Positions 7,691 through 62,118 of a stretch of DNA of 64,000 nt are shown here, in pieces (within the stretch, counting starts at the first letter, position 1; the number at the start of each line of letters is the position of its first letter). The DNA is taken from positions 7,733,358 through 7,797,357 of the forward strand of contig JAJEKV010000052.1 in assembly GCA_021234155.1 (NCBI GenBank). The letters run 5' to 3'. The stretch is from Isoetes taiwanensis. Its lineage: Eukaryota > Streptophyta > Lycopodiopsida > Isoetales > Isoetaceae. Made by a program: the position numbers and the translations under genes. The notes under the pieces were generated by a model. It was not told the DNA's origin. It saw only the letters and a program-made list of their open reading frames with translations, and searched no databases.

Positions 7691-7738
7691 AGTGATTATC
7701 TTACAGAGAGAGCTTTTGAATTTGAGGATTTTGAAGGA

Positions 7739-13540: not shown

Positions 13541-13564
13541 ACTACATCTCGAAAGGCTTTCACA

Positions 13565-16645: not shown

Positions 16646-17130
16646 ACTTCAAAAGCTTGTAATGTGGTTGGGAAAAACATCACGTGAGTAGCAAAATGGA
16701 ATTTGTGTGTATGCCGTGTTTGTACATAAACTTAGAAAAGAGGGATGATTTCTCTAGGATGTTATTGATAAACTATGTAGCAGGTCATAGATCAAACCTT
16801 TTGCAACGTTGGAAGTACGATTAAGACTCCGAAAGCTTATACTATGCTTCTTAACACATGAAATGTATTTGCATGATGAAGTCGTAAAGATGATCATGGA
16901 TTGCGCACAAGAATCAAGAACTGGTTCAAATTTTGCGTGATTGCATTTTTCCTTACTTCGATGTCTTTTTCAGTAGCAATTGTGCCAAAACTTCATTACT
17001 TCTCTTTGCTCACTAAGAGGACATTGAAACGTGTGCCTAAAGAAACAAGTGGACTTTCATTGGAACGCCGTATATTAGGATGTATGTTGGCTTCAAAGTG
17101 CATGCATAAGCACATGATATCAAGGATTTT
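16646..17130 (+). repeat. Repeat R3, copy b (truncated)
   Basis: Near-identical to 12767-13255, then diverges at about 17131 after AAGGATTTT. It ends in unique sequence (17131-17940) in which I see no gene; a short open frame at 17519-17704 is not recognised. Confidence 0.75.
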
Positions 17131-21224: not shown

Positions 21225-21600
21225 GTTCCCGCGATTATGCAGGTGAATATTTGGACCTCATTATCATGTTTTGACCTGGACATGAGTCAGCCCCCGGTCT
21301 CAGGTCCATTGTGAAGAGGATGCTGATCTTGGACTGAAGCAACTCCATACGCCGACATCTCGCGGCCGTTAAATAGGTCGCTACTTTATGGGTCACATAT
21401 GTAACAGTTGTTCCCTTCTTGTACATGTGGATGTATTGAGCCTCCGCCTCCCTTTGTGTATTGTTGTGCTTTGTCCTTCAAAAGACATCCTCAGACAAAG
21501 GCATATCGAGCCTCCGGTGAGATTGAGCAAGTTGCCCATTCTAGGGAGACAGCTTTTTCTTGGGGAACTGGAACTCCTTTTGTATTTTCATGGTCACTGT
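21225..21600 (+). repeat. Family C, partial copy 3 (left direct repeat)
   Basis: Starts at CTTGTTCCCGCGATTATGCAGG and ends TCATGGTCACTGT. It matches 23486-23855 and, inverted, 14180-14460. Many sites that are CAG or CTG in the 14-16 kb copies read CG, CCG or TCG here, for example GGCTGCTACTTT versus GGTCGCTACTTT. Together with the copy at 23486 it flanks a 1.88-kb block. Confidence 0.8.
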
Positions 21601-23485
21601 GAAAAGCGTACAAAAACACAAAGAAAACCCCCTGTTATTATGCTACATATTCAACTTTGCAATACAAACTACACTTACAAACCCAAAACATGCACCTCGA
21701 GACCTTGTACTCTACTCGAGCAATATGAGACTTCCCTTGTACTCAAGCAACCTCAAACTCCCTCGCTACCCAAAGCAACCCCACGCTAAAACAAACTCGC
21801 ACCACAAACTAAGCTTAACCCGTAAGAATTGATGTGAGTGAAAAATAAATCTCCTAAATAATCATGATAATCTCAACTTCAAAACTTCGAAAAGCGGCAT
21901 TCCCTAGAAATCTAATCTTCTAGATAATCATGGTAATCTTCAAAAAATAGCAGTCTCTAGAAAACTAGAACACTTCAAACTTAACTTTAGGACTTCCAAA
22001 TTGTAACTAGCTCTAGAAGATGTACAATATATAAATATAAATGCCGCCAAACCAGAAGTTAATCAATCTCGTGTTCCAAACCCAATACCAAAATATCCAA
22101 ACAAAGGTCAATCTAAAACTACATATTTGAAAAGCAAAGAGAAGAGCAAACCCACTCCACGGCTTAAAATGGGAAAGGTTGAAAAGAGCAACGCCCAAGT
22201 TGGAAAATACATTACAAATACCAATCAAAACCCAAAGCCGCAAAAGAGGTATCACTTCAATTTGTACAATGACCATACAATGTAGAACAAGGCCAATTCT
22301 GATTGTAGAAAAGGGTCCACTATCGAAAGCTTGCTGGTGACTAAACTAACTAAAATGTAGAACAAGGCCGCTTATGATTATGAATCAAAGGCCGCTGCAG
22401 AAAGCTTGTCGGCTTAATCAAACTTTAATACGAGACCCACCGGTAAATCTAGGTGCAAGGCTAGCCATAAGCATACTCGGCCCCCGCCCATCAACAATCC
22501 TAGCCGTGGAAAGCTCTTTCCGCCAAAGTATACCATAAACAGATAAACAAGTTCAAATAATATTGTTGAAATAATATTGGAACCAAATCAAACACATATG
22601 CAAATAGCAAATGCCTAAGAAATGTAGTACAAGTAACCAACCAACTAATGAGAACCAACTCTAACGCTTTTAACAAAATGGACCAGAGTGGCCTATTCAA
22701 AATAAGAGGTTAAAAAGTAACTAATGCTTGAATGATGCTTTAGAGAAAGAGTGCAGCTTCACATCAAGTGTATCCAAATATATAATATGAACAACTCTAG
22801 ACATGCAACAAATGAATCTGACCAGCATAAGGAATCTAATATGAAATTCAACATTAAAAGGGTCAACATAAGGACTCAAATATCAAATTCGGACAAGGGA
22901 CTTACCCAGTGCACCAATTTGTAGAAGTAGGAAGTCGCGAAACCAGCTGTAGGAGGTCGGTCAAAGAACCACAAACAATTCCACTCGCCAAAGAAATGCA
23001 TCCTAAAGCAATTTGCAATGCAAAAGGGCTTAACACCTACCCAAAGGCAAACCGACTTAAATAGATCCGGATCATGCAGATATATAAATAAGACCGCTGA
23101 CCGCCTCCCAATGAACCAATAATCTTACCAAGAAGCTTAGATAGAATCTCAACTCATAGAAAGGGGCGCAACTAGCAAACTTTGGTGGATATATGTTCAA
23201 CCCCTACCATCTAAACATGAATTTTCACCACCATAAAAATGAAGCTAGGACAAACATAAATTTATGTCTCAGAGTGGTTGTAGTGTAGAGGAGCTAGGAC
23301 TTAAAGAATAAGGAATGCAATCTTAAGAGAGATCCGCCCGAAGTCTTGCCAAAACCGCAACAAATGCTCCCACTCTTACATTAAGAGAAGGTAGCTTATT
23401 GGACCACAAGGCAAAGCGTAACATAGGAATACTAAAATGCGCTTTGAAGGGCAAGGAAACAAAGTAAAGATCAAGCCAATGCTTG
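21600..23485 (+). repeat. 1.88-kb block repeated at 59.29 kb
   Basis: Near-identical, in direct orientation, to 59292-61190. It starts GTGAAAAGCG and ends AAGATCAAGCCAATG. It is A-rich on the plus strand and has no convincing coding region. Here it is flanked by two family C copies as direct repeats. At 59.29 kb the left family C copy is absent and only the right one is present, so the block edge at about 21600/59292 is a true breakpoint. Confidence 0.85.
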
Positions 23486-24080
23486 TTCCCCGCATTATGC
23501 GTGTGAATACTTGACCTCATTATCATGTTTTGACCTGACATGAGTCAGCCCTCGGTCCGTGGTCCGCTAGAAGAGGATGCTGATCTTGGACCAAGCAACC
23601 CATGCCGACATCTCGCGGCCGTTAAATAGGTCGCTACTTTTATGGGTCACACATGTAAAGTTGTTCCCTTCTTGTACATGTGGATGTATTGAGCGCCCTC
23701 CTCTCCCTTTGTGTATTGTTGTGTTTGTCCTTCAAAAACATCCGAATAAAGGTATATCGAAGTCTAGTGAGATTGAGCAAGTTGCCCATTCTAGGGAGAC
23801 AGCTTTTTTCTTGGGGAACCGAACTCCTTTTGTTTTTTCGTGGTCACTGTAATTGCTGCTTAGATTACTTTTCCTAGAGTGGTGAAATCAAATCAAGTTT
23901 CTTGAATTTGCTGCATTTTCTTTGCTTCTATGAGTCCAACGGAAATAAATGCGCTTCTTTCACTATAATGAAGTTACCATGTAAAATTACATTAGTGCTT
24001 GATTCAGAGCATGATGCAGAGACTCTAATTACACACATCCTGTGCAGTGCAGTTGGTGATGATGATGTAAATATTGTTTT
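23486..24080 (+). repeat. Family C copy 4 (right direct repeat)
   Basis: Begins GCTTGTTCCCCGCATTATGC. It includes the shared segment to 23855, TTGCTGCTTAGATTACTTTT, and then part of the HEAT-like exon (about 23960-24075), which reads LPCKITLVLDSEHDAETLIT in frame. It diverges after AATATTG at about 24078. CAG/CTG alteration is strong in 23486-23850 but absent in 23855-24080. Confidence 0.75.
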
Positions 24081-26999: not shown

Positions 27000-27837
27000 G
27001 AAAAGAAATACGATAAGACAAAAATCAAACATGAAGAAACTAACGCAAAAAGCCGCTACATTTGTCGAAGCGCTTAGCACCGGGCAAGTGAGGCCTACGA
27101 CCAAAACATTTTAAATAAGTAGATATGCCACCACAAAGGGTGTCCCATCCATCATGAATACGAACATCAATATAACCTCAACATAACATACTCAATGCAT
27201 CATAAATGAGGGTGCTACCCGGGGTTTAAACTCAAAAGGAGGTCGATTAACGGCCAGGATCTCCAAAAAACAATAGATGGAATAATGACAATGGTGTTGG
27301 CTAGCATAGAACATTGGCTAGGGTGGTCCACTCTATCTGCCCCTCATGTGTACACTTTGCAAATAGGCTGAAACATGGCATGATTGTAGCCTTCCGGAGA
27401 TGTAATCTCATGGAATCATCCTATGAGACTACTCCAGGTTGCATCTCCTCGGTCTGATGAGGCGGGAATGGGATAAGCCTCTTCTCGGAACACAATGGTT
27501 CCATGGGTGGCTAGAGGACCCGTGTCCCACTCTAACTTTAACCCTCAAAATGCGTAAGCTGGGCTCACCCATACCTACCGAGCCCGTGACATCCCTTTGG
27601 ATCTGCTCGCGACCTAGGGAGGTGTCGACCTATACTCGAGCCACATGCGGTGACCGACTATAAGCCTAGCACACCATGGGAGCCTTATGATAAGCAAGAC
27701 TCCTACTTCCATATCACCATTGTGTCTGTTGTCTGGTGCTCAATCACGTCATAACATCCACAGCCAGGTGGGCTTTTGTGCACAGGTCGCATTTATTGGC
27801 ATTTATGGGATTCTAGCTAGAAACATCTATAATTAAT
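27000..27837 (-). repeat. Old related LTR, left part
   Basis: From about 27120, and clearly from 27290, the sequence is a diverged version of 28000-28745 in the young LTR. Compare TGGCTAGGGTGGTCCACTC here with TGGCTAGGGTTGACCACTC there. It runs to 27837, where the young element inserted. The other half resumes at 41884 (after the target duplication) and ends at 42726. The outer left edge cannot be fixed. Base composition is less CG-rich than in the young LTR. Confidence 0.75.
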
Positions 27838-29472
27838 TAGACGCCCTCGCTAAATATACGGGCGGCACAGACACTGCAGAAATCCCCCATCCGCCAACAA
27901 CCGCGACAAGCTCTTTCGCCTACCCCCCCAAGACTCTAGGGTGACCCTAGTGCGGGAGGGGACACGAAGGTGTCTTGGCGCGCCCTTCCCCTATGGGCTC
28001 CTATAACAGCGGAAGCGATAAACATGTCAGAACTAGCATCAACAATACAAATACTACCTCGAAGGGTAGTCCATCACATATCCAAAGGTGCAAAGAACAT
28101 AGCCACATACCATAAAACATGAGAGCTCCTACCCGTGGATCTGACACATAAGGAAGTCGACCGATCGATAGGCCTCAAGATAGAGCGTAATCGAAGTCAT
28201 AACAATGGCGGGCTGGCATAAGACAATGGCTAGGGTTGACCACTCCATCCGCCCCTCCCCGGCATACTTTGCGTGATGGGCTAGATCGTGCTCGCACGAC
28301 TCTAACCTTCCAGATACGCAATCCCATGGCATCACCCATCGGGACTACTCCGTGTTGCATCTCCCCCGGGTCCGCCGAGGTAGGAAGGGTTGCATCTCCC
28401 CTTCCCGGGTCTAGAGGCTCCACGGGGCTAGAGAATCGTGGACGACACACACCATTCGCACCGACCGAACCCCCTAAAACAAGAGCCAAGCCGACACTTG
28501 CAACTCTTGAGAGGCAAGGTGGCAACACCTTCGCCCCAGAGGTGTCGGACCCATGCCCGCCCACACCTAAGTGACCGCCATAAGCCTAGCCCACTATGGG
28601 ATCCCCCGAGTCCCCACTCCGGCAGGATCCTCCCTCCATATTGCCTCTAGCCCCCTGCTGTGTAGTGTCGAGTCACATCATAGCCTCCATAGCCTGGTGG
28701 GTTCCTATGCAAAGCCGCAATCTAATAGGAACTAAGGGATCTATACTAGGAACATACTACATATGGCCCTAGGTCTCTACCCCCTTCCCAACACAAGAGG
28801 AACAAACATGATCAACCATCATCTCCTAATCATCATGAACACATCATATGAACATCTTAACCTAATCATACATATCTAACAATTAGTTAGGGTTCATTGT
28901 TTAGGGTTCAAGATGTTCAACAAAGGATCTAGGGTGGCTCTCACGCTAGCTACTTAAATACTAACCCATCCGGAATTCTAACTCCCGTGATGAACTAACA
29001 TGGACTCTACTCAACCTACCTCCTCCGTAAGCGCTTCCTCCCATCCCCGGGCGCCTCCATGCTCTTTGACGTGGCTCAAGACTTGCTCCCTCTACGATCA
29101 TACACACCTTCCGTGGGCTGCCGCCCGTGCTAGGCTACGACGATCCATGCTCTAAAACGGAGTTTCGGGCTGTGGGATGAGGGTTTAGGTGCTAGGTCGG
29201 GAAAAAAAGGTCTAGGGTTAGGGTTAGAGCTAATATAGGTGTGGGTCCACATGGGATGCCACGTGGCACCACTAGGATGAGGCCGCGGTGGCGTGTTGCC
29301 CAATAGGATAAGGCCATGTGGAAATGGGTCTTATCCTAAGGTTATCTAAGTTAAACAATTAACTTAGATGTGCACCCCTTGCCACTTCCCAATGCATACA
29401 AGGCTACCGTAGACTTGTATGGTGACGGGTCCAGAATATACGTATATAGCGATATTCCCCTCGAACGCCACA
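27838..29472 (-). repeat. 3' LTR of the chromovirus
   Basis: On the plus strand it should open TGTGACGCC, but reads TAGACGCC here, and it closes with GCCACA. It is about 1.63 kb. It matches 40244-41878 throughout. The differences cluster at sites such as TCAGAAC/TCGTAAC, TCTGACAC/TCTCGGACAC and GATCGTGCTC/GATCAGGCTC, all CAG or CTG in at least one reading. A TTAGGG-like doublet near 29216 is part of the LTR, not a telomere. Confidence 0.9.
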
Positions 29473-29483
29473 TTCTCCCCTTA
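29473..29483 (-). other. Polypurine tract of the chromovirus
   Basis: Directly beside the 3' LTR, the minus strand reads TAAGGGGAGAA and then TGTGG. An all-purine run abutting the LTR is the plus-strand primer site for reverse transcription. Confidence 0.85.
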
Positions 29484-30256: not shown

Positions 30257-30706
30257 CTACCAACTAGAGGACATGAGCCGTAACTTAAGGTTAACTAAGA
30301 AGCATACTAAGCTAACCTCCCCGGGCGAAGTCGGGTCCACCAGGTCGGAGACCACTCGCCCATCAAACTCCTTCATGAACTCGGGTATTGCTTCTCCAAA
30401 TCTTGCTTTAATACCCACGCCAAGGTTTTCCACCGGCAAGTGTTTCCACTTGACCAAACACCGGAGGAACCGAGACCTCCTAGTCTTCTTGAATGACTTA
30501 TCAAGAAGTAACTCGTGCACCATTTCCACTTGCTCTTCCTCGGCCATTTCCAACAAAGTTGGAGTATCCAAAACCTCCTCGTGGTTAGGATTGTGCCTTT
30601 TAATAAACTTACGTGGAAAACCTTGTGAACTTTGAGATGGGCCTGAAGATCCAACTTGTAGGCTTGGGAGCCCACTCTCTCCAAAATCTTGAACGGACCA
30701 GCCCAC
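30257..30706 (-). pseudogene. pol: Integrase C-terminus with chromodomain
   Basis: The minus-strand frame 30706-30257 ends in a segment VEMVHELLLDKSFKKTRRSR followed by LVKWKHLPVEN (about 30530-30400) and IPEFMKEFD. The L-V-K-W-K-x-L-P order with a closing acidic helix is that of chromoviral integrase chromodomains, which bind histone H3 tails to direct insertion. The usual TWE after PVEN reads LGVGI here, probably through a local sequence error. The preceding integrase C-terminus is in another frame, 30771-30600, with LAPRWAGPFKILERVG and HKVFHVSLLK, both typical of the GPF/Y module. A frameshift between them is probably artefactual. Confidence 0.85.
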
Positions 30707-31850
30707 CTAGGGGCAAGCTTTGCAACTCCCAACCGAAGCTTAGCTTGCTTGACCTTGATCTTCAACCACACGCTTATCGCTTACTTTGAACTCTCTTACT
30801 TTGCCCCCGTGCTTGTGGCCACACTCTTCTCACGACTTTTTGCCGCTAGGAGGTAACCTCACTTCTTCCACCAACCGCCGTGATATCTCCTAGCATTTGT
30901 TGGGACACCTCAACCTTTGACACGGATTGTGCCAAGTGTCGGGGGTTAAATCGGGTAACCCGTAATTTACCATGAAAGGAGACATCCGGGATGACTCCTC
31001 GCTTGGCACTATTGTAGGTTTAATTCCACCAAGTGGATGTACTCCTCCCACTTGACCGCTTATTCCACACAAAGCTTCTAAGCATATCTTCAATGATTCG
31101 ATTCGCCCCCTCCGCCTGACCATCCTGCTTGGGGATGATAAGTCGTGGCTCATGGAGAGCTTCGCGTGAATGGTGTGAAGAGATCCCGCCAAAAGGCACT
31201 CATAAACTTGGAATCTCTATCAGATATTATCTCCCCGAGGCATGCCATGGAGCCTAAAAATCTCCTTCACAAATAGCTTGGCAAGATCTAATGCCGTCGG
31301 TCAAGAGTTCTACAAGGCACAAAATGTGCCATCTTAGATAATTTGTCTACTACGACCATCAATGCATCCTTGCCTCAAGAGTCTTGGGGAGTCCCGTGAT
31401 AAAATCCATACTTACCACTTCCCACTTCGATTCGGCACCGCTAGAGGTTCCAAGGCACCTGAATCAAGTCGCCCGCTTTGGTTTGCGGGCACAACCGACA
31501 CTCGCGAATATATCTTGCTATTCGCTTCTTCATTCCCGCCGTAAGTAGCTACTTCGAATCTTGAAGTAGGGCTTCATAAACCCCTGCATGCCCCGCTATT
31601 GGGCTGTTGTGTGTGTCATGGAGGATTAGCTTTCTTACCCCGATGATTCGGCACACACAACTTATGCTTATGATACAACAAGTTGCCTTCCTTCTTATAA
31701 TGCTTGAAGGCTTCTCGCTCCTTATCCTGTTCTAGCCTCTCTAGAAAGGCTTTCCCATACCTCCTTGAAATCACCATCTGATGGTAAAGTCTCCTCAATT
31801 CTCTTGCCATACCCGGCCGAAAAGAGTTGATATAGCATTACAATGAATTT
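30707..31850 (-). pseudogene. pol: Integrase (zinc-binding and catalytic regions)
   Basis: On the minus strand, 31810-31616 reads ARELRRLYHQMVISRR and then FKHYKKEGNLLYHKHKLCVP, the linker before the integrase zinc finger. Further on, recognisable pieces of the core occur in several frames down to about 30890 (FMVNYG near 30970). The DDE residues cannot be read reliably because the frame is broken every 50-150 bases. Length and position match a complete integrase. Confidence 0.7.
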
Positions 31851-33160
31851 GGTTTCAAGAGGTCTTCTAGAAAGAGCATCGGGCGCACCACATTCGACTT
31901 ACCGGCTTATAAGCAATCTCAAAGTCATACTCTTTCTAGGAATTCCATCCACCCCTTTGCCTCGCATTCGAGTGGTTGGGTAAAATGTATTGAGGCTCGT
32001 GATCAAGATCTAACTCAAACTTCCTCCCAAGCAAATAATGCCTCCAAATACTAAGAGCCCCCGACAATCGCTAGAAGTTCCCCGATCATGGGTTGATAGC
32101 CGCTTCGCGGGTGTCGCTCAACTTCTTGGAATCATAAGCTATTACCCTTCCTTCTTGCATAAGGACTCCACCTGCTATCTTACTTGCAGACCGCTGCTAC
32201 TATCTTGTCCTTGTCCCGATCTCGCGTAACTAGCACCGGTGTGTCGTTGTTAAGGCCTTCTTAAGCTTTTCAAATGAAGCTTGAACATTTTCTAACCAAT
32301 GTGTTCTCCAATCTTTCACCTTAACACTCTTAGTGAGGTCCGCCAAAGGGGACGTTTCACTTAGCTAAGTCCTTCACTAACTTTTCAGAATAACCCGCTG
32401 CACCTAGAAAGCTTCTTACTTCGGGCCACATTCTTTGAGCTGGCCAATCTACTACCGCTTCGATCTTTTATGGGTCGGTGGAGATTCCTTCCGGCCGATA
32501 TGACATGGCCCAAGTACTCCACTCTTTCAAGTAGCAAAGTGGCATTTGGAGAGCTTGCCATACAATCGATGGCGCCTCAGCCAACTTTTCCAAGACTTTC
32601 CTCAAATGCCGATCATGATCTTCCATGGACTTGTCAGACTAGAATGTCGCCGAAGAAAACAATGACAAACTCATCTAGAAAATCCCCTCAAGACGCCGCT
32701 CATGAGGCGATAAAAGTTGCCGGAGCTGCTCGACAATCCAAAGGGCATTATCAGAACTCAAAGTGACCATACCGCTGCTCAAGGGGTCTTATGGATATCC
32801 TCTTCTTTTTATTCTTATTTGGTGGTACCCCCGACCTCAAATCAATCTTGAGAATACCTTTGCTCCTTGGAGCTAGTCCATTAAATCATCTCGCCTTTGG
32901 CAAAGCATACTTGTTCTTTATCGCCCTGCTTGTTGAGTCGGGCGATAGTCTATGCACATTCTTAAACCGCCATCTTTCTTCTTCACGAAGAGTATGGGTG
33001 CTCCAAAAGGAGACACACTTGCTCTAATAAAACCGAAGCTCAAGCAATTCCCTCGAGTTGCTTCTTGAGCTCAATCAACTCCCGTGTGCTCATCCCGTAT
33101 GGTGCCTTGTGGTAGGCTTAGCATCCGGGTGCTAATGTGATCTCACACTCCACACCCCTA
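31851..33160 (-). pseudogene. pol: Reverse transcriptase and RNase H
   Basis: Minus-strand pieces in changing frames follow RT order: [15 protein letters not shown] (about 33105-33060), an ILFVKKDGGL-like segment near 32990, a GHFEF/PFGL region near 32770-32740, and the polymerase box, which reads EFVIVF then FGDILV near 32670-32650 instead of the usual LDD. RNase H-like text follows to about 31900. The damaged box sits where a CTG would stand in a normal gene, so the loss may be artefactual. Confidence 0.75.
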
Positions 33161-33730
33161 TAGGTGGTAGTCGCCGGATCTCATCCGAAATACATCCTTG
33201 AATTCTAAAATAAGCCTAGCTACCGCTTGGGCAATTGATTTCCCTTTGATCGCTTCCTCCCGCTTATTGGGCTCAATTGCCTCCAATCTCAAGATGTAAT
33301 CCACCTTATTTCTTTCTATACTTTTCCTTAACCGCTTCAAAGAAATACACCGCATAGAAGAAGAAGTCAGTTTTTCTTACCTCTCACTATGAATTTGGTG
33401 CCGTCCGGGTGCTGCCATGGCTTAATTTCATTAAGGTCGCAATGATCATGGCTTTTGCTGGCTTTAGGAACTCCATTCCTACTATAAGGTCATACCTTCC
33501 AATCTCCATGACCTGCCCCCATCGGCCACTTACTTCCACTCAAGGTCTATGTCGAATGTGATCCTCCTCCTCTTAGTGTGCCGAATGGCCGCTTTTATTA
33601 TAGCAACCGGCCTTGGCTTAGACTTCAATACCTTGTTCTTCATTAGGGCAGCCAGCCTAGGAGAGGCAAAGTTATGAGAGCTACCCGTATCTATCAATAC
33701 TAGATATGGACTGCTATCTATGATCCCTCA
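33161..33730 (-). pseudogene. pol: Protease and protease-RT linker
   Basis: The retropepsin active site reads YLVLIDTGSSHNFAS on the minus strand at about 33712-33665, with intact D-T-G. The frame 33355-33158 (IEPNKREEAIKGKSIAQAVA then EFKDVF) matches the linker that precedes RT in Ty3/gypsy Pol. Confidence 0.8.
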
Positions 33731-33769
33731 CCGCAATGACTGCTGGATCGACTTTCAATGTCATCCGAC

Positions 33770-35175
33770 TCAATGTTTGCACATATGTGGCACTCCACCA
33801 TCTATGAAGTCCCGGGCCTCATGCTGGTCGCCGCCTTCATCCGCTTCGCTGAATCCCCAATCCATAAGTTCCCGCCAAGGTCGCCTCGCATGATTTAATG
33901 GGCAATCATGGGTTCGTGCCCCTCGGCCGGAAGCACTCAAACAAAGCTTCTTCTCAATACATTCCGCCTCTTCTTTCGCCAGCCGTCTAGAATACGCTTT
34001 AACATGCTGCCCCCCGATGCATTCTCGGCGGCTTACGGTCCCCAAAGTTCTTACCCCGAAGCTCTCCCTTTGCCGCTGGCCTCCCGATGGCGTGGTTGCC
34101 GATTGCTTACTTTGCTGTCGCCCTTGGTATCTGTCCCCGCTGACCTTCCTTTGAAGGCCGATTGTCTCACCGGGCGCTGTCGGAGCTTCTTCCAAACTTA
34201 TGGCTTTATCCTCGCTTCCGCCATCGAATTTAGGGTTGATTGCTCTGGACTAGCCTTTTGATATTGCCGCTCAATCCCTCAATGTAAGTCTCGACCGCTT
34301 TTTTTCCGACACTCCCAGAACATGGAGTCTAAGTCGCATAAATTCCTCTCAGATACTTTGCAACCGACAATGTACCCCTCGTTCAATCTATAGAACCTGC
34401 GGATTCGCGCTCGCTAGTATGTGACCTAGGCACATAATGTTCAACCGCTAAAAGCCTTGTGAAGGTCTTGAATCAGAACCGCCTTTTGAGCTTGTTAGAC
34501 TTCTCGTGATAGCCTTTCCACCGCATTCTAGTCTGCCCTATCAAGTTTGTCTGTAGCAACTTTCCCTATGTCCTTATCCTTCATGCCATAAGAGTTGCCG
34601 AACTCTTCCATCTCGCTGCCAGGCTTCGCCTCCATACCCGACCGGTCCTTCCCGAACTCCACCCAACTTCCTAGTCTTCCACACATTGCTCATAGCGCCG
34701 CAACTTTCTTTTTGATAATCATCTTCCTTCCTTGCCCCGCTCTTACCGCGGGAGTGCCTGACTCACTTTCTTCGAGCTAGAACCGCCACGACCGGTCTGG
34801 GTGTCCATGAGCTGGAGCTAGGTGGTGTTGGAGATCTTCTATTTTTCCTTTTTCCTCTTCCCCGCCTCCTCGACATTTCCCCGGGTTGTCTTGCCCCTCC
34901 TCGCTGTGGACCTTCCTCAATGCCTTGCCGAGGTAGTGGTGGAGGTGGAGGTGGTGCGTGTGCATATTCTGGGCATTCATCAATGGGTGGCCCAATGGAT
35001 CAGCTGATGCATCCGATTCCTCATCCGTACCAGCCCTTGCGCTGATTGCCTCCGCGCCATTTCCTCGTTGTTGTCATCCCCGACACGTCCGAATAGGTTC
35101 CTTGGTATCCATCGATGCCGCCGGCCCCGCCTTGGGAACCCGAGCCGGTGTTCCTTGTCGCAAGGATTGATCATC
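33770..35175 (-). pseudogene. gag: gag region with zinc knuckle
   Basis: Minus-strand frames read through a proline/arginine-rich part (about 34990-34820) and a nucleocapsid-like zinc motif near 33950-33890: LC, then G-x-G, then THDCPLNH. Its cysteine spacing is disturbed by likely base errors. EHYVPRSHTSE near 34440 is in the capsid position. The assignment rests mainly on location directly upstream of protease. Confidence 0.55.
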
Positions 35176-35449
35176 AATGCTTGTTATTTGTTTTACATAT
35201 CAATTATATCCGCTTACAATTAATTCATTGTTAGATACAAAAGAAATCATGTGAAATTTCCACTTACAAGTCAAGATGATACTAAGTCATTAATATATAG
35301 AAGTACATTACATGATAATATCAAAGAGATTACTCAATACAATTTAAAACTTAAAAGGAAATCTTATAGCTGATCAATGGCCTCCCCGAAAGCCTAAAGA
35401 AATTCTTCACATCTCTGAATCGGAGGCCTTTGCCGAGGTTGCGCAGATG

Positions 35450-36880
35450 TTCCTTGTCGATCTTCCCCGAGTGCTCGCGCCATTTCCGGGCCTCGAGTTC
35501 TCGTGCGCTTGTCGCTACTACGTAAAGTGATGCATCCCCTGAGGTGGCCCCTAGCTAAGTCGAGGCAATGGAGCGCTATGCACTCTTTGAAAAGGATGAC
35601 GGATCTTCACGGGCGTATATCTTCGAACGCTGCCCGGCCCGAGAGTGCTAAGGAGAAGTGCCACCGATTCTTCCCCTTTGGACTGAACTCCTTGTGGAAG
35701 ACTACCATTTGCCCTTGGCCGAGGGCTGGAAGATAGTAGCGTAGTGCCATACCCTTACCGTGCCTCGCTGATCCCGTGCCTTTCCTTTGAGCCGCCCCGC
35801 CAGAGGCATCTAACCGCCATAAGGTCTTCATGGTCTCTCCACATGCTGGTTGCATTGTCCAAGTTGATGCTATCGACCTTCCCTCATGCTCCCCGGCTCG
35901 AATCGCTCGCTTGAGCTTGGGCCCCTCCCTCGGCTTGTACAAGCAGGCTCAGATCCGCTGGAACTCCTCCTCTCAAATAATGTTCCCGGGCTGCCGATAG
36001 ATTTCCTTTATCCGGCCTGATAGGCCGCTATGTCGACATTGTCTCCCCAAAGATAAGAATGTCTCTCCGCCAGCCCCTTTGGAATCTCCCCGGGTATGAA
36101 TAGTCGATGAGGTCCCGGCTTTTCCCATGTGCTATCATGCCTAGAAGCTCGCCGATTCAAGTCCCCGCTCCTCGGCAAGATGACAAGTTGAGGATGTCAC
36201 TTGCTAGAATGTACTCCTCTCCGCCGATGACTATCGGCGACAGAGCCGCGGATGCCGACCCGGTGGCTCGGGTGGCTTTTTCTCGATGTCGCCGCCATGC
36301 CTCGACATGTACCTCTCGCATTCTTGTCGCCTTTCTGCTCTCCCACTGGGTTTTGCCCCTAGCTACCAGAGTCTTCATGGATCTCGCAGAGATGGTGTCC
36401 CCCGGGCCGCGGCCATAGTATTCGTGAGGTGGAGGACTCTATATTCGTGATTTGATCCCTGGCCCCACGGTATCAAGTGGAGCTAAGTCTAAGGGCTGAA
36501 CGGAAGGTTCCCCTACTTTGTTGATTGGCTTATAATGCATGAAGAGGGCAAGGGCTGTCTGAGATGAAAGGTACCTATGCCTATTATGTCCGCAGTCATG
36601 TAACCTGGCATGGTCCTAGTCCTATCCCATAGCCGCTTCTTGCCTTGGATCCCGCCATCTCGACCTAAGGCTTGGGGTGAGTGTCTCAAGAGAAACCCAC
36701 CCCTCCCCCTGGGGGTAGTCTAACTTCCCAAGGTAGGACCCGTTGGTCATATTGGCACATGATATCAGATAGTATGGTGTTCTAGACAGAGTTGCATGAA
36801 GATCAAACAAGTGGTCAAACACGTAGAAGGCTTGGTCACAGGAGTCGATGGATATGGCTTGCAAAGATTGTACCATCTCT
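35450..36880 (-). CDS. Unidentified coding region upstream of gag
   Basis: Between the tandem repeats and gag, the minus strand is GC-rich and has long open stretches. One is 36876-36622 (starts MVQSLQAISIDSCDQAFYVF). Another is 36378-36157 (contains REVHVEAWRRHREKATRATG). A third is 35942-35607 (contains YYLPALGQGQMVVFHKEF then SPKGKNRWHFSLAL). They differ in frame but show protein-like composition. About 35180-35400 is AT-rich and non-coding, separating them from gag. They could be the true N-terminal part of Gag or an extra gene. No family is recognised. Confidence 0.35.
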
Positions 36881-38534: not shown

Positions 38535-39680
38535 TTAATAAGAAAACATAGTACATGAAAATTTAAACTTTCTAACAAAATTTACAAAAATTAGGCCTAG
38601 GGCCTCCCCCCCTAATCCTCCGCGGCTAAGTGAATGTCCTTTGGCATAAGGGTGACTCTCTTAGCATGGATGGCATGTAGATTTCCTTCCTCAAAGAGCT
38701 GCACCAGCTCGCTTCTGGGCCGCCTCTTGCGTGGCCCGGACGCTAGAGGAGTGATCCTATAATCGGCCCGAACTCCCCGTGATGACTTCCTAAGGAGACG
38801 CCAAGGGCTTCTTCCTTATGAGGAGATTTGTGCACATTTGGAAGTGCTTGATCCCCTAAACACCCGGCGCATACATCGCTCGCCCGTGGTGAACCCTTTT
38901 GGGTTTTTCCGGCCTAGGTGGGGGTGGCTTCGCTGATTTTTCTTCGGCTGCCGCCTCCACGCCCGGCCTGCACCTCTTGACGACAATACCAATCGCTGTA
39001 CTCGGCCCAACGACGGAGGTACCCTTGTACGCCGCCATCTTCCGCTAAAACTCTGGGCCCGGCCGGAGCGAATGCCCGCCTCCCCTACCTTCTCGCTTTT
39101 CACCACCTTTGGTGGCTCGCCACTTCGGTAGGGTGGCCGCGATCGGGTTTGAAGCCCGACGGCTTCGTCCCTTCCTCTTCTTCTTTCCTCCACCTCCTCA
39201 TGTTGGTGCCGGGAGGCTCTTTCTATGACCCACTGGCCCTCGGGCGAGGCTCGCTGCTTCTTCCTCTTCCTTCTTTTCCTCGGCCGCCTCCGGGCCGGGC
39301 CCTCTTCTTCCTAGCAGCCTTCTTCCGCCACCAAGAATCCCTTTTTCCTTTGCCCTTCTTCTTAGGCACCGGCTGGGCCCGGGCTTGGTGCTGCTCCCTC
39401 CACGCTTCTTCGGACCTCGCTTCTTCCACCGGGTGTCCGAGGCCCCAAGTGGCAGGACTCGCCCGCCTTCTTTCGTTGCCTCCCGATGAGGAGCTGCCGC
39501 CGGGGCTCCCTCAAGATCATGGAAGCTCGTCCGTCGCCGCTGGCCACCGGGTGGGAAGCCCTCTTCCCTCTTGGGTCGAAGCGGGTGCCCTCGATCTTCT
39601 TCGGTATGGCCCCACGCCACCGGGCCATCGAGAGGGTGGGTCGCCGCCAAACTTCCTAGCTGTTTGTTTTGCGCGCCATG
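38535..39680 (-). CDS. Histone H3-like protein with long basic tail, carried by the chromovirus
   Basis: The ATG at 39680 gives Met-Ala-Arg. After a codon that lacks two bases, the sequence continues Lys-Gln-Thr-Ala-Arg-Lys, which is the H3 N-terminus including the Lys9 position. The other end of the region reads as the H3 histone fold: HFQMCTNLLIRKKPLA (about 38850-38800), then QEAA (about 38710), then FEEGNLHAIHAKRVTLMPKD (about 38690-38630) and RRIRGE (about 38603-38620), and a stop at 38537-38535. Between these lie about 260 codons of Lys/Arg/Gly/Pro/Glu-rich tail, for example KKKGKGKRDSWW and EEKSAKPPPPRPEKPKR. Canonical H3 has 136 residues, so the tail is greatly expanded. The region is in gag-pol sense and starts about 550 bases after the PBS. 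Several frame changes break it. Many coincide with probable CAG/CTG errors; the two-base loss in the Thr codon does not. Role unknown; H3-like identity is strong for the two ends and inferred for the middle. Confidence 0.75.
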
Positions 39681-40230
39681 TCTTGTGGCTCAAGAAATGG
39701 GTGACGAAGGCTGATCAAGAGAGAGATGAAGGTGAAGGGTTGGAGAGAGAGAATGAGGTGTCGATATTTAAAAAGGAGGGTCCCTAGGAATATTCTCCCA
39801 CCATAATTATCCCTATTTATTATAGCCTCCCTTATTAATTGCAAAGATATTTTAATTATTAATGTATATATTAACTTTGTATTAATTTTGTATTATACTT
39901 TAAATTTTCGAATTTCCTAATGGTTTGATGTGCTAATTATGGATTCAAGGCCATTTTTCACTGGTCTCCGATTGGCATGATTCTTCGAATCCATTTTATG
40001 TGAAATTTGATGCGCATACATAATCTCCACACCAATTTACTAGAGGATGAATTGACTCATTCATTTCTTCGCCTAATACTTAAGCTAATTTCGACCCACT
40101 ACCTAAGAGAAAAATTTTTTCCCTTATTTTCGAGGTTCAATGGTGGAAATTTTTATTTCACACCCCTATAAGCTTGTTAGACTACTTTCAAGGTTATGGT
40201 CGTGCTAGTTCCTGGTCAACCAAGAACATC

Positions 40231-40242
40231 GCCTCGATACCA
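40231..40242 (-). other. Primer-binding site (Met-initiator tRNA type)
   Basis: Just inside the 5' LTR the minus strand reads TGGTATCGAGGC. Plant gypsy elements use TGGTATCAGAGC, complementary to the 3' end of initiator tRNA-Met. The difference is the loss of the CAG, the same change seen throughout the altered blocks. One base (40243) separates it from the LTR. Confidence 0.8.
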
Positions 40243-40243
40243 T

Positions 40244-41878
40244 TGTGACGCCCTCGCTAAATATACGGGCTACCGCACACTCGGCAGAAATCCCCCATCC
40301 CGCTCAACAGCCAAGACAAAGTTCTCTCCGTCTACCCCCAAGACTCTAGGGTGACCCTAGTGCGGGGAGGGGACACGAAGGTGTCTTATGCGCCTTTCCC
40401 TATGGGCTCCTATAAAGCTTGGAAGTTTATAAACATGTCGTAACTAGCATCAACAATACAAATACTACCTCAAGGGTAGTCCATCACATATCCAAAGGTG
40501 CAAAGAACATAGCCACATACCATAAACGGAGAGCTCCTACCCGTGGATCTCGGACACATAAGGAAGTCGAATCGATCGGATAGGCCTCAAGATAGAGCAG
40601 TAATCGAAAGTCATAACAATGGCGGGCTGGCATAAGACAATGGCTAGGGTTGACCACTCCATCCCCCCGGCATACTTTGCGCATGGGCTAGATCAGGCTC
40701 GCACCACTCTAACCTTCCGGACACGCAATCCCATGGCATCACCCATCGGGACTACCCGTGTTGCATCTCCCCGGGTCCGGCCGAGGTAGGAAGGGTTGCA
40801 TCTCCCTTCCCGGGTCTAGAGGCTCCACGGGCGGCTAGAGAATCGCGGACGACACACCATCGCTGCACTAATTAAACCCCCAAAACAAGAGCCAAGCCGA
40901 CACTTGCAACTCTTGAGAGGCAGTGGCAACACCTTCGCCCCCAGAGGTGTCGGACCCATGCCCGCCCACACCTAAGTGACCGCCATAAGCCTAGCCCACT
41001 ATGGGATCCCCCAGAAGTCCCCACTCGGCAGGGATCCTCCCTCCATATTGCCTCTAGCCCCGCTGTGTAGTGCTGAGTCACATCATAGCCTCCATAGCCT
41101 GGGTGGGTTCCTATGCACAGCCGCAATCTAATAGGAACTAAGGGATCTATACTAGAACATACTACATATGGCCCTAGGTCTCTACCCCTTCCCAACACAA
41201 GAGGAACAAACATGATCAACCATCATCTCCTAATCATCATGAACAATATCATATGAACATCTTAACCTAATCATACATATCTAACTATTAGTTAGGGTTC
41301 ATTGTTTAGGGTTCAAGATGTTCAACAAAGGATCTAGGGTGGCTCTACGCTAGCTACTTAAATACTAACCCATCCGAGTGCTAACTCCCGTGATGAACTA
41401 ACATGGACTCTACTCAACCTACCTCCTCCGTAAGCTTTTCCTCCCATCCCCGGGCGCCTCCATGCTCTTTGATGTGGCTCAAGACTTGCTCCCTCTACGA
41501 TCATACACACCTTCCGTGGGCTGCCGCCCGTGCTAGGCTACGATTTAATCCATGCTCAAACGGAGTTTCGCGCGCGGGATGAGGGTTTAGGTGCTAGGTC
41601 AGGGAAAAAGGTCTAGGGTTAGGGTTAGAGCTAATATAGGTGTGGGTCCACATGGGATGCCACGTGGCACCACTAGATGAGGCCGTGGTGGCTGCTGCCC
41701 AATAGGATAAGGCCATGTGGAAATGGGTCTTATCCTAAGGTTATCTAAGTTAAACAATTAACTTAGATGTGCACCCCTTGCCACTTCCCAATGCATACAA
41801 GGCTACTCAGGTAGACTTGTATGGTGACGGGTCCAGGAATATACGTGTATATAGCGTATATTCCCCCGTAATGTCACA
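40244..41878 (-). repeat. 5' LTR of the chromovirus
   Basis: On the plus strand it opens TGTGACGCCC and closes AATGTCACA, so the ends are inverted repeats with TG...CA. It is 1,635 bp long and matches the other LTR, apart from small clustered differences, mainly at CAG/CTG-like sites. Transcription would start in this copy and run leftward. Confidence 0.9.
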
Positions 41879-41883
41879 TTAAT

Positions 41884-44574: not shown

Positions 44575-44889
44575 TACGGCGGTCCGTTATATGCATTCTC
44601 GTTCTTGAAGTTAATGACGTCTATGGCAGATCGAACTTTTGCCTCCTTAGTCTCTTGACATGTTTTTTGCTTTTATGGGATTTGTACATGGTCCACAAGA
44701 AGAGACCCAATGTTTATGATCCTAGATCGTAGTCTGTGCTCAACGTTTTCTCATTTTCACTTAGATCATGCTTGTTGTCTTCCTTTCTTCCAGTTAAGTA
44801 TTATCTTATAAGGCTAGTATAGGAGGTTGTAGGAGGTTGGGTCTCTTAGGTTTGTTTCTTCCACAAGGTGTTTCTCTGTTTGATTGAAT

Positions 44890-45900
44890 CCTGATTGTAC
44901 CATGATTAATACTTTGCAGATTTTAACAGAGGAACGAGCTGCAAATTTTTTGGATTTGCTTATTCTCGCATTATGCAGGTGAATATTTGGACCTCATTAT
45001 CATGTTTTGACTCGACATGAGTCAGCCCCGGTCCTGCGGTCCATTGTGAAGAGGATGCTAATCTTTGACCTGAAGCAACCCATGCCGACATCTCGCGGTC
45101 GCTAAATAGGTCGCTACTTTATGGGTCACATATGTAAATGTTGTTCCCTTCTCTTGTACATGTGGATGTATTGAGCACTCGCCTCCCTTGTGTATTGTTG
45201 TGCTTGTCCTTCAAAAGACATCCAGACAAAGGCATATCGAGCCCGGGTGAGATTGAGAAGTTGCCCATTCTAGGGAGACAGCTTTTCTTGGGGAACCGAA
45301 CTCCTTTTGTATTTTCGTGGTCATTGTAATCGCCGCTTAGATTATTTTTCCCGTGAGTCGGAAATCAAATCAATTTCTTTGAATTTGTCGATTTTCTTTG
45401 CTTCTATGAGTCCAAATGAAATAAATGCTTTTTTGTTTCACTATATGAGTTACCATGTAAAATTACATTAGTGCTTCATTCGAGCATGATGTAGAGACTC
45501 TAATTACACACATCCCCGGCAAAGGCAGCTTGGTGATGATGATGTAAATATTGCACAATATGTAGTCAAAGCAAAGACAAGTACTTGGCTAAAGTTGGTC
45601 GATATCATTATGGATCACTTGACATCTTCAAAATCTTCGATGCTCGTATCTCGTGATATGGTTTCTCCTCTTTTTTTGTTTTTGAAAGAAACCATTTTCT
45701 TAAACACGATCATGTTATAGAGAGCATTAATTTTGTGGTTCTATCCGGTCTATTATACAAAGTTCGTGACAAAAGTCGGACTAACTAACAACTTCTTTCG
45801 TATTCTAACATTCATAGGAAATGCATGCATATGTAATATGGCAATAATGTCTTATGGTTTCATTTTTCTCGGCAACTTTTGATGCAGCTTTGTGAAAGCC
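44890..45900 (+). repeat. Family C copy 5
   Basis: Inverse of 13565-14500. It includes the exon after TACTTTGCAG reading ILTEERAANF then LDLLIL (about 44925), the shared segment, and a frameshifted HEAT-like exon (45460-45640). CAG/CTG sites are heavily altered: CCTGTGCAGTGCAG in the clean copies reads CCCCGGCAAAGGCAG here, and TTCAGATGCTCAGG reads TTCGATGCTCG. Confidence 0.8.
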
Positions 45901-46905
45901 TTCCTAATGTAGTTTATACTCCATTGATCATTCCGAGTCAAAAGATGTGTCTTTTGTCTTTCCTCATAACTTATATTGTGATTTTGTGGTTGTGGGTTAA
46001 TAGGTTTGTCCCATCATTTAACACCGTATAGGTCTTGGATTTGAGTTCTTACGTGGATGTAAAAGATACTATCATGTTCTATCATATTCCTAAATTGGAC
46101 GTTGGCACGTGTGCTTGCATATTCCCAACATTGAATGTAGGCACTCAAAGCATTTTGTAATTTTTGTAACTATCACACCTACGGTTATAGCTAAAATCCT
46201 CGATATCATGTGCTTGTGCATGCACTTTGAAGCCAACATACATCCTAATGAAAGTTCACTTGTTTCTTTAGGCACACGTTTCAATGTCCTCTTAGGGAGC
46301 AAAGAGAAGTAATGAAGTTTTGGCACAATTGCTACTGAAAAAGACATCGAAGTAAGGAAAAATGCAATCACGCAAAATTTGAACCATGCGCAATCCATGA
46401 TCACCTTTACGACTTCATCATGCAAATACATTTCATGTGTTAAGAAGCATATTATAAGCTTTCGGAGTCTTAATCGTACTTCCAACGTTGCAAAAGGTTT
46501 GATCTATGACCTGCTACATAGTTTATCAATAACATCCTAGAGAAATCATCCCTCTTTTCTAAGTTTATGTACAAACACGGCATACACACAAATTCCATTT
46601 TGCTACTCACGTGATGTTTTTCCCAACCACATTACAAGCTTTTGAAGTGTGACGCTAATTTCCCAAGTTACAAGAGATTCCATATTTCCTGACAAATGCG
46701 GGGCACCGTCACTAAGCCACTAGTATTCCTAATTCTTACATATAATAATGGTTTTCTTTTTATTTCCAATTATTTACCATTGACCACATTATACTTTAGC
46801 ATGCACTTTAAAAGCAGTCTAATTGGTTGGTGTAATCAACTGACACCGTTTTGGTTTTGGCACTTGAGGCAACCGTGTTATTTGTTATGACTTTCGGCCT
46901 CTGGC
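45895..46905 (-). repeat. Inverted R3, Helitron remnant and R2 end
   Basis: 45895-46640 is the inverse of R3, 46640-46760 the inverse of the 16528-16645 remnant, and 46745-46905 the inverse of the end of R2. The order therefore matches copy b (16.4-17.1 kb) for the remnant, but its R3 part is as long as in copy a, so it descends from an ancestor longer than either direct copy. Confidence 0.75.
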
Positions 46906-47269
46906 TATAGCTAATACGAGCAATACGATCATCGCCTTATTATTGCTTTTGTATGTGTCTTCAAGAATCCATCGAGACTTAAGCCTACCTCTATTCAATG
47001 CTTGAGTAAAAAGAACTAAACATGTAGGCAAATGCAAGCTAACATGGTAAGCTTCCAGTTCGAGGTAAGTTTACTCTTTTTTCTATTGATCCACATTGAA
47101 GTGTTGCACCTTTTTCTGAAGCCAATGAAGCCATATTGTAGGCCCTTTTTTTCCAAGCTTACAAGCATCGAACAATCCGTGGAACACTAATTATATGTAT
47201 GTGTTTGAAGCTCTTCTCTTTGTCATGCATAAACGGTTTTTTTTAGCAAGAAATTGTTAGTTCAATGCA

Positions 47270-61190: not shown

Positions 61191-62118
61191 GTTCCCAAGA
61201 TTATGCGGTGTGAATACTTGGACCTCATTATCATGTTTTGACTCGACATGAGTCAGCCCCGGTCCGTGGTCCGCTGTGAAGAGGATGTCGATCTTGGACC
61301 AAGCAACCCATGCCGACATCTCGTCAAGTTAAATAGGTCAAGCACTTTATGGGTCACACATGTATGTTGTTCCCCTTCTTGTACATGTGGATGTATTGAG
61401 CGCCCGCTTCTCCCTTTGTGTATTGTTGTGCTTGTCCTTCAAAAACATCCGAACAAAGGCATATCGAAGTTCAGTGAGATTGAGCAAGTTGCCCATTCTA
61501 GGGAGACAGCTTTTTTCTTGGGGAACCGAACTCCTTTTTGTTTTTTTCGTGGTCACCGTGAATTGCCGCTTAGATTACTTTTCCTAGAGTGGTGAAATCA
61601 AATCAAGTTTCTTGAATTTGTCGATTTTCTTTGCTTCTATGAGTCCAACGGAAATAAATGCATTTTTTTCACTATATGATTTACCATGTAAAATTACATT
61701 AGTGCTTGATTCAGAGCATGATGCAGAGACTCTAATTTACACACATCCCGCGGCAAAGGCAAGCTTGGTGATGATGATGTAAATATTGCACAATATGTAG
61801 TCAAAGCAAAGACAAGTACTTGGCTATTATGTTTCACCACAAAGTTGGTCGATATCATTATGGATCACTTGACATCTTCAAAATCTTCGATGCTCGTATC
61901 CGCATGTGGTTTCTCTGCTTTTTTTGTTTTTGAAAGAAACCATTTTGAGAGGCTAGGTTAAATGTATCTATCCCTAATAGGGGAGGTAAGGGCAAGGTAT
62001 GTAAAAAGTTTTGAAAGTTCTTGCCCGCTCGAAAAATTGAACACGATACTAATATTGTTTATTTTAGTGGAAGTTTATAGCGTGTTCTAGAGGTAATGAT
62101 TTTATGGCACCGCACGCA
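61190..62118 (+). repeat. Family C copy 6, interrupted by CACTA
   Basis: Inverse of 15125-15999, with the shared segment, the HEAT-like exon (61690-61900, frameshifted) and the flank to TTTTATGGCACCGCACGCA. Similarity to 15125 stops at 62118/62119, where the CACTA end begins. TGCTCTGAAAATTG and AGCAGGTTCTAG in the clean copy read CGCTCGAAAAATTG and AGCGTGTTCTAG here. Confidence 0.8.

What the first reader, a model, noticed from the sequence alone, without database searches (positions are those of the whole stretch)
38535..39680. A chromovirus carries a histone H3-like gene between its primer site and gag
Seen: in gag-pol sense, the region opens Met-Ala-Arg, then Lys-Gln-Thr-Ala-Arg-Lys, and closes with an H3 histone fold (FEEGNLHAIHAKRVTLMPKD and RRIRGE), with a long Lys/Arg/Pro tail between. 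Both ends of H3 are present in the right order and strand, inside an element with LTRs, TSD, PBS and PPT. Known: H3 has 136 residues, and gene capture by plant LTR elements occurs. Inference: the element has captured and reshaped a host H3 gene. The region could form variant nucleosomes at the element, mimic H3 tails, or divert the silencing machinery. I know of no described element of this kind.
Basis: partly seen in the sequence, partly recalled or inferred. Interest (0 to 1): 0.95.

Follow-up and report, generated by a model that had tools for sequence, protein, structure and literature searches.

The report
Quillwort retrotransposons encode a histone H3
A large family of jumping genes in a plant that is probably a quillwort carries its own altered copy of histone H3, a DNA-packaging protein, kept intact in many copies, which suggests that these elements use a private histone in their dealings with the host's chromatin.

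Summary
On the minus strand, 38596-39679 is a frame-broken copy of an H3-like gene inside a Ty3-type element: two 1635-bp LTRs, ATTAA target duplications, primer site, then H3-like gene, a second unknown gene (ORF-X), gag-pol, LTR. The genome, which matches Isoetes taiwanensis in size, holds at least 447 places with the family's own H3 motif. Intact copies encode 362-378 aa: an H3 N-terminus (MARTKQT-x-RK), a long charged tail and a full H3 fold (Pfam 8e-30). Median dN/dS of the fold is 0.049 among 24 intact copies, which were chosen by protein likeness. Twelve DNA-contact and H3-H3 interface residues are kept in 24 of 24, while the patch that sorts H3 to chaperones is replaced. A sister family of chromoviruses carries another H3-fold ORF and a homologous ORF-X at the same place. 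The only described TE carriers of H3 that my searches found are fungal hAT DNA transposons. I read it as a conserved accessory histone of a retroelement lineage. Capture, conservation and anatomy are shown; incorporation into nucleosomes, and why, are inferred. Expression is untested.

The parts
41879..41883 (-). target-site duplication, 5' side (ATTAA)
   Evidence: sequence
40244..41878 (-). 5' LTR, 1635 bp, TG...CA
   Evidence: LTR pair
40225..40242 (-). primer binding site, TGGTATC..., initiator-Met tRNA type (tRNA name recalled)
   Evidence: same word at the right place in 33 of 35 family loci scanned
39680..40235 (-). untranslated leader; 560-582 nt from primer site to ATG in 23 intact copies
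39765..39772 (-). TATA-like TTTAAATA about 86 nt before the ATG, followed by a CT-rich stretch; present in 23 of 24 intact copies; possible internal promoter (inference)
38596..39679 (-). H3-like gene (this copy broken; intact relatives 362-378 aa)
38612..38815 (-). open piece with the C-terminal part of the H3 fold
   Evidence: Pfam PF00125 1.6e-9; PDB H3 5e-11
35393..36837 (-). ORF-X, second accessory gene, no known family; homologous in sister family B; broken here
   Evidence: tblastn 2e-56 with L077 ORF; A/B comparison
33309..35123 (-). gag and aspartyl protease, frame-broken
   Evidence: tblastn with L074 ORF 1e-87; Pfam on L074
32390..33285 (-). reverse transcriptase, frame-broken
   Evidence: tblastn with L075, 6e-45
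30314..32413 (-). RNase H, integrase and chromodomain region, frame-broken
   Evidence: tblastn with L072; SH3_Tf2-1 6e-20 in 30373-30780
29473..29482 (-). polypurine tract AAGGGGAGAA
27838..29472 (-). 3' LTR, 1635 bp, ends in TA
27833..27837 (-). target-site duplication, 3' side (ATTAA)

Best explanation
A lineage of chromodomain-bearing Ty3 retrotransposons in a quillwort took up a histone H3 gene and has kept it as an accessory gene between the primer site and gag, next to a second accessory gene, ORF-X. Shown: multi-copy, conserved position, open frames, purifying selection, and a kept H3 fold; in the window's family also a kept H3 N-terminus. Inferred: the protein is made (from the LTR transcript or from the conserved TATA-like site before its ATG), enters the nucleus, pairs with host H4 through the kept H3 helices, and is built into nucleosomes or tetrasomes on the element's own cDNA, new insertions or its integration sites. 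In the window's family it would be loaded by a route other than the usual H3 chaperones, because residues 87-90 are replaced, and would carry an intact H3K4-type tail end but changed surroundings of K9 and no K56 or K79. The most likely benefit is chromatin at the element that is harder to silence or better for integration.
For: Histone fold in intact copies: Pfam 8.4e-30, PDB H3 1.6e-31. Family size: 40 candidates scored of 805 from the first look, the window's own included, all matching; 447 exact motif matches, 0 for the reversed control; 80 of the 111 best protein matches have no stop in the matched stretch (counted by me from its table). Position: primer site at the right place in 33 of 35 loci scanned. 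Selection: 24 intact copies, median dN/dS 0.105 whole (276 pairs), 0.049 fold (275 pairs); second codon positions of the fold differ by 2.2% against mean noncoding distances of 0.146 (LTR), 0.09 (leader) and 0.18 (downstream). Residues: R49, R63, R69, R72, R83, R116, T118, C110, H113, A114, D123, L126 kept in 24 of 24; positions 87-90 replaced in 24 of 24; K56 and K79 absent in 24 of 24. N-terminus MARTK-x-T-x-RK in 24 of 24, Q5 in 23; residue 10 no longer S in 24 of 24, residue 7 Y in 16 and A in 8. Sister family B repeats the plan with its own H3-fold ORF and a homologous ORF-X.
Against: No expression, localisation or binding data. The intact copies were picked by protein likeness to one copy, which lowers dN/dS; synonymous sites are more diverged (0.60) than noncoding parts (0.09-0.18), so the ratio itself may be too low. 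Family B does not share the changes that I lean on: it keeps K56 and K79 in 14 of 14 and differs from host H3 only at 87 and 89 within the chaperone patch, and it does not start with the H3 tail. In family A, F84 is lost in 24 of 24, and V117 and R129 are each changed in one copy. The AlphaFold model is weak (mean pLDDT 49.5) and its two H3 matches (best E 5.7e-5) have poor TM-scores. A long, partly acidic tail is unlike a nucleosomal H3. Roles of numbered residues are recalled, not measured here.
Confidence: 0.5

Rival explanations
1. Replication factor: the H3-like protein is part of the virus-like particle or pre-integration complex, compacting cDNA, carrying it into the nucleus or tethering integrase to chromatin, without forming true nucleosomes.
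For: It lies on the gag-pol strand upstream of ORF-X and gag in two families; charged tail and DNA-contact arginines kept.
Against: Conservation of the H3-H3 interface (C110, H113, A114, D123, L126 in 24 of 24) and, in family A, of the H3 N-terminus goes beyond what a generic DNA-binding protein needs.
Confidence: 0.22
2. Decoy: the protein occupies H3-tail readers, writers or chaperones (for example K4 or K9 enzymes) and so weakens silencing, without entering chromatin.
For: MARTK-x-T-x-RK kept in 24 of 24 although the rest of the tail was rebuilt; AARKK, like the H3 K27 context, in 23 of 24 (the four letters AARK arise in 21 of 2000 shuffles of one tail).
Against: A decoy would not need the whole fold, which is the most constrained part. 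Sister family B does not begin with the H3 tail.
Confidence: 0.18
3. Passive cargo: a captured gene that is copied along with the element and has no role for it.
For: TE-borne H3 in Mycosphaerellaceae is mostly dead (PMC6710886); the window copy is broken; copies for dN/dS were chosen by protein likeness.
Against: Median dN/dS 0.05-0.11 by segment over 24 copies at mean dS 0.63, open frames of 362-378 codons, two families with the same plan.
Confidence: 0.05
4. Two independent captures (compatible with each of the other readings): families A and B each took up H3 at the same site.
For: H3 fold identity A-B 55% is below A-host 62% and B-host 83% (25 A rows with one duplicate, 3 B rows), while RT is 78% identical; the N-terminal parts differ completely.
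Against: ORF-X beside it is homologous (E 3e-13); the tree puts A and B on one side against host and public H3, but weakly (87/71).
Confidence: 0.3

Closest known systems
hAT DNA transposons with a histone H3-like gene, Pyrenophora tritici-repentis (PMC3538342, passages read)
   Same: A transposable element carries an H3-like gene plus an ORF of unknown function; multi-copy; ESTs for the H3-like gene reported.
   Different: DNA transposon with terminal inverted repeats in a fungus; 26 very similar copies; not a retroelement; in the passages read no long rebuilt tail and no long-term selection is described.
hAT elements with H3-like sequence, Pseudocercospora fijiensis and five relatives (PMC6710886, passages read)
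   Same: Hundreds of TE-borne H3-like sequences (784 in P. fijiensis).
   Different: DNA transposon; 90% of the P. fijiensis sequences truncated, copies inactivated by RIP.
Plant LTR retrotransposons with additional ORFs (review PMC7264820, passages read)
   Same: Extra ORFs present in most copies of a family.
   Different: Described as mostly between pol and 3' LTR, env-like or unknown; the word histone does not occur in its main text.
Plant chromoviruses (Ty3, chromodomain integrase)
   Same: LTRs, primer site, gag-PR-RT-RH-IN-chromodomain order.
   Different: H3-fold ORF and ORF-X between primer site and gag; the clade within chromoviruses was not determined here.
Core histone H3 and its variants
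   Same: Fold, DNA-contact arginines, H3-H3 interface; in family A the N-terminus.
   Different: 362-378 aa instead of 135-136; tail of about 260 aa; in family A residues 87-90, K56 and K79 replaced; encoded by a retroelement.
Virus-encoded histones (Medusavirus and other large DNA viruses, bracovirus H4; recalled; a Medusavirus nucleosome appears only as a non-significant fold match)
   Same: A mobile or viral genome encodes its own core histone.
   Different: Those are DNA viruses; here it is an H3-like gene in an LTR retrotransposon.

Membership tests
Chromovirus (Ty3 LTR retrotransposon) | two LTRs with TSD, PBS and PPT | tested here: met
Chromovirus (Ty3 LTR retrotransposon) | gag-PR-RT-RH-IN order | tested here: met
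   window by tblastn; Pfam gag, protease and RT on family A stretches L074-L076, RT to integrase on family B L072
Chromovirus (Ty3 LTR retrotransposon) | chromodomain at the integrase end | tested here: inconclusive
   Pfam Chromo 6.3e-8 in family B element L072; a tblastn match of L072 to the window reaches past its chromodomain, but the window piece alone gave no Pfam Chromo match; no family A integrase end was fetched
Core histone H3 | PF00125 over the whole fold | tested here: met
   L006 ORF residues 264-365, 8.4e-30; window piece partial
Core histone H3 | DNA-contact and H3-H3 interface residues (numbering and roles recalled) | tested here: met
   24 of 24 at 12 positions; V117 and R129 23 of 24; F84 0 of 24
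Core histone H3 | about 135 residues, short basic tail | tested here: not met
   362-378 aa; so it is H3-like, not a canonical H3
Core histone H3 | is built into nucleosomes | not testable with these tools
   needs reconstitution or ChIP
Centromeric H3 (CENH3) | longer loop 1 and divergent C-terminus (recalled) | tested here: not met
   fold aligns to H3 without an insert between helices and nearly all intact copies end LARRIRRERP; no CENH3 sequence was at hand for direct comparison
hAT-borne H3 (fungi) | hAT transposase and terminal inverted repeats | tested here: not met
   LTR element with Ty3 gag-pol
Passive gene capture | no selection on the captured gene | tested here: not met
   median dN/dS 0.049-0.113 by segment; sampling caveat stated

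The most novel reading that the evidence does not exclude
A retroelement lineage runs its own chromatin system: an element-encoded H3 variant forms private nucleosomes with host H4 on the element's DNA, loaded by its own partner (ORF-X as a dedicated chaperone or loader) instead of host chaperones, and read by the element's own chromodomain integrase to guide integration or block silencing.
Probability: 0.15. Interest if true: 0.97.

Novelty: new variant of a known kind. Interest (0 to 1): 0.88.

Why it matters
Host plants silence transposons largely through marks on histone H3 (established knowledge). An element that has kept its own H3 through many rounds of transposition, with the K4 end kept and, in the window's family, the surroundings of K9 changed and K56 and K79 gone, would be the first retroelement known to me to enter that contest with a histone of its own. 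It offers a natural H3 variant with an altered chaperone patch and a rebuilt tail, in hundreds of divergent copies, and so a directly testable system for how histones are sorted and how silencing recognises its target.

Tried and rejected
A water-lily origin was first suspected from P0001 and dropped: it is a tandem canonical H3. Public-protein searches with the parts outside the fold found nothing: 0 of 76 candidates for residues 175-280 of family A, 0 of 1691 for residues 1-325 of family B. ORF-X gave no Pfam match and a useless model (pLDDT 38); my idea that its end looks like a histone helix is supported by no search. The AlphaFold model of the H3-like protein is weak. A host plastid marker search (PF01824, matK) never ran: the machine was busy. 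A search to learn what share of RT copies carry the H3-like gene never ran either. That dS is larger than noncoding divergence is unexplained; the codon-position comparison is given so that the claim of selection does not rest on dS alone. The single-capture tree is weak (87/71).

Full report
WHAT IS THERE. On the minus strand the window holds a Ty3-type retrotransposon from 41878 down to 27838: LTRs of 1635 bp each (40244-41878 and 27838-29472; 113 mismatches in 1608 aligned bases and 35 gap runs), ATTAA on both outer sides, TGGTATC at 40242 right after the 5' LTR, and AAGGGGAGAA before the 3' LTR, which ends in TA instead of CA. The H3-like stretch starts with ATG at 39679 and ends near 38596. 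Its last open piece, 67 aa, hits Pfam Histone at 1.6e-9 and H3 chains of the PDB at 5e-11; the start spells MAR then KQTARK across a frame break. tblastn with natural relatives places ORF-X at 35393-36837, gag-protease at 33309-35123, RT at 32390-33285 and RNaseH-integrase at 30314-32413, all on the same strand. The genes of this copy are broken; against three intact relatives the H3-like gene shows 24, 24 and 28 gaps that break the frame. The assembly of the presumed host rests on Nanopore reads polished with Illumina (PMC8566536, passages), so decay and base-calling error cannot be told apart here.

HOST. The window lies in G000:C1059, an assembly of 1,658,258,908 bases in 1110 contigs. Isoetes taiwanensis was published with 1658.30 Mb in 204 scaffolds plus 909 contigs (PMC8566536). 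I take the host to be this lycophyte; it is an inference. The main text of that paper has 0 occurrences of 'histone' and gives LTR elements 15.72% of the assembly.

A FAMILY, NOT A ONE-OFF. Searching the genome with the DNA of the region gave 805 first-look candidates; 40 were scored, the window's own included, and all 40 matched, the others at 72-87% identity in their main matches. A 32-base degenerate pattern for the family's own VTLMPKDIHLA motif (host H3 reads VTIMPKDIQLA) occurs 447 times exactly and 0 times in the reversed control; some family members, such as L037 and L038, vary in this motif and are not counted. A search with one intact protein scored 111 of 21,545 first-look candidates; 80 of the 111 have no stop in the matched stretch (my count from its table; these are the best-scoring, so the share is not that of the family, and some match only part of the query). 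Of 37 family loci fetched (L002-L038, of which L009 and L020 repeat L006 and L003), 35 were scanned for LTR and primer site (L037 and L038 fell out because their motif varies): 33 of 35 have TGGTATC in the right place and 34 of 35 have LTR sequence; L024 has neither in the flank held and L036 lacks the word. From primer site to ATG there are 560-582 nt in the 23 of 24 intact copies that have the word. A TTTAAATA box about 86 nt before the ATG, followed by CT-rich sequence, is present in 23 of 24 intact copies and may be an internal promoter.

THE PROTEIN. Twenty-four distinct intact copies code for 362-378 aa. They begin MARTK-x-T-x-RK in 24 of 24, with Q5 in 23, Y or A at position 7 (16 and 8), and no longer S at position 10 in 24 of 24. 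A Ser/Glu/Lys/Arg-rich tail of about 260 residues follows, with AARKK, like the surroundings of H3 K27, in 23 of 24 (AARK arises in 21 of 2000 shuffles of one tail). The last 100 residues are an H3 fold (Pfam 8.4e-30 in L006; PDB H3 1.6e-31 for L010), 62% identical to host H3. Mapped on H3 numbering, R49, R63, R69, R72, R83, R116, T118 (DNA contacts) and C110, H113, A114, D123, L126 (H3-H3 interface) are kept in 24 of 24; V117 and R129 in 23 of 24; F84 in 0 of 24. Positions 87, 88, 89 and 90, which sort H3 to its chaperones, are L, M/T, T/S and R/Q, all different from host H3, in 24 of 24; K56 is M or Q and K79 is R or V (the roles are recalled). AlphaFold2 gave helices in the order of a histone fold plus a long helix at 206-248, with low confidence (mean pLDDT 49.5); Foldseek's two matches with E below 0.001 are nucleosome entries (5.7e-5 and 6.4e-4) with poor TM-scores.

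SELECTION. Pairwise dN/dS (Nei-Gojobori, 24 copies): median 0.105 whole and 0.113 tail (276 pairs each), 0.083 central and 0.049 fold (275 pairs each); for comparison family B fold 0.055 (84 pairs, 15 loci), the 3 fully open family B ORFs 0.174 (3 pairs), host H3 0.011 (98 pairs). Two cautions. The family A copies were found by protein likeness, which favours low values. And dS (0.60) exceeds the mean distance of LTR (0.146), leader (0.09) and downstream noncoding DNA (0.18) among 21 of the 24 copies (L028, L035 and L036 left out); ORF-X shows the same (dS 0.54 in the 7 of 21 copies with an open frame in the stretch held), so this is not special to the H3-like gene. I cannot explain it. The case for selection therefore leans on codon positions: in the fold, positions 1, 2 and 3 differ by 5.3, 2.2 and 21.4%, so second positions change far less than the noncoding parts.

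A SISTER FAMILY WITH THE SAME PLAN. A search for PF00125 in the genome scored 150 of 8705 candidates; the first 15 are canonical H3 genes (L039-L053). The next 15, L054-L068, are a second kind, family B: an N-terminal part MPRFKLT..., a Gln-rich stretch and an H3 fold. Three of the 15 (L056, L060, L064) are open throughout, 434-459 aa; their fold is 83% identical to host H3. Family B keeps K56 and K79 and, in the patch, differs from host H3 at 87 and 89 only (14 loci with a complete fold, L059 dropped). So the changed marks are a trait of family A, not of the whole lineage. In one such place (L071, L064, L072, read separately) LTR, TGGTATCAGAGC, H3-fold ORF, gag, protease, RT, RNase H, integrase and chromodomain follow each other, and the second LTR is 90% like the first. 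In 12 of the 15 B loci ORF-X sequence follows the H3-fold ORF; L064 and L065 go straight to gag, and L058 shows something else, perhaps an insertion (my reading of its ORF list). Beyond ORF-X, gag was read in one of the 12 (L060 with L070). ORF-X of A and B align over 454 residues at 22% (3e-13). RT of A and B is 78% identical, gag 46-49%, the H3 fold 55%. So the two accessory genes are old companions in one chromovirus lineage and change much faster than RT. Whether the histone was captured once or twice is open: A and B fall on one side of the tree against host and public H3, with weak support (87/71; 43 rows: 8 of 24 A, 13 distinct B, 4 host, 18 public). Host H3 has E at position 77 in 15 of 15, against D in 241 of 241 H3 stretches found by the same pattern in the 120 public proteins held (animals and plants); family B has E in 13 of 15, family A Q in 17 and E in 7 of 24. 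That fits capture from the host's own lineage, weakly.

HOW IT MOST LIKELY WORKS. What is kept is what an H3 needs to pair with H4, to form the H3-H3 bundle and to hold DNA; what family A has lost is the chaperone patch and several modification sites. The simplest reading is an element-encoded H3 variant that enters nucleosomes, loaded by another route, on the element's DNA or at its target sites. Replication-complex and decoy roles remain (odds in the rivals). Nothing here shows that the protein is made.

WHAT IS KNOWN. Fungal hAT DNA transposons with H3-like genes: 26 very similar copies in Pyrenophora, the longer form with an extra ORF of unknown function (PMC3538342, passages), and 784 mostly truncated sequences in Pseudocercospora fijiensis with relatives in five other species, inactivated by RIP (PMC6710886, passages). 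Reviews of additional ORFs in plant LTR elements (PMC7264820) and of gene capture in plants (PMC13317346), a paper on additional ORFs in rotifer LTR elements (PMC5408684) and the Isoetes sinensis genome paper (PMC10541799) have 0 occurrences of 'histone' in their main texts; of each I saw passages only. In ten literature searches of open-licence PubMed Central papers, the papers listed, judged by title and start of abstract, showed no retroelement with a histone gene; several lists were cut (one search listed 25 of 9,930), and subscription journals and most preprints are outside that library. A protein database of 5.8 billion sequences gave no relative of the parts outside the fold, within that search's sensitivity.

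VERDICT. Real, multi-copy, conserved, and of high interest. I file it as a new variant of a known kind because a transposable element carrying H3 is in print for fungi; I found no report of a retroelement that keeps an H3 variant as a selected accessory gene.

Noticed in passing
35393-36837 (minus); L077:286-1797: ORF-X, about 500 aa, no Pfam family and no confident model, conserved beside the H3-like gene in both families; a possible partner or chaperone.
   Followed up: partly
family A loci L006-L038 (21 intact copies used): Synonymous sites of the H3-like gene and ORF-X are several times more diverged than LTR, leader and downstream noncoding DNA of the same copies; cause unknown (CpG decay, LTR exchange or constraint on the leader are candidates).
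   Followed up: partly
G000:C907:18377829 and 18381138: Two H3 motifs 3.3 kb apart on one strand, perhaps an element with two H3-like genes or a nested copy.
   Followed up: no
window 6419-9846 (plus): Another Ty3-type RT and integrase region, only 33-36% identical to the RT of the H3-bearing relatives L072 and L075.
   Followed up: no
G000:C1059:7649217-7650287: A second copy of the H3-like family about 83 kb before the window's start (L004).
   Followed up: no
L064, L065: Family B copies that go from the H3-fold ORF straight to gag, so ORF-X is not strictly needed or is supplied in trans.
   Followed up: no
L058:1977-3330: After the H3-fold ORF of this family B copy comes a frame ending like a LINE-type reverse transcriptase (my reading), perhaps an insertion.
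   Followed up: no
window 12767-17061 and 44881-46917; 21598-24076 and 59293-61788: Long near-identical repeats in direct and inverted order, probably repeats of other families.
   Followed up: no
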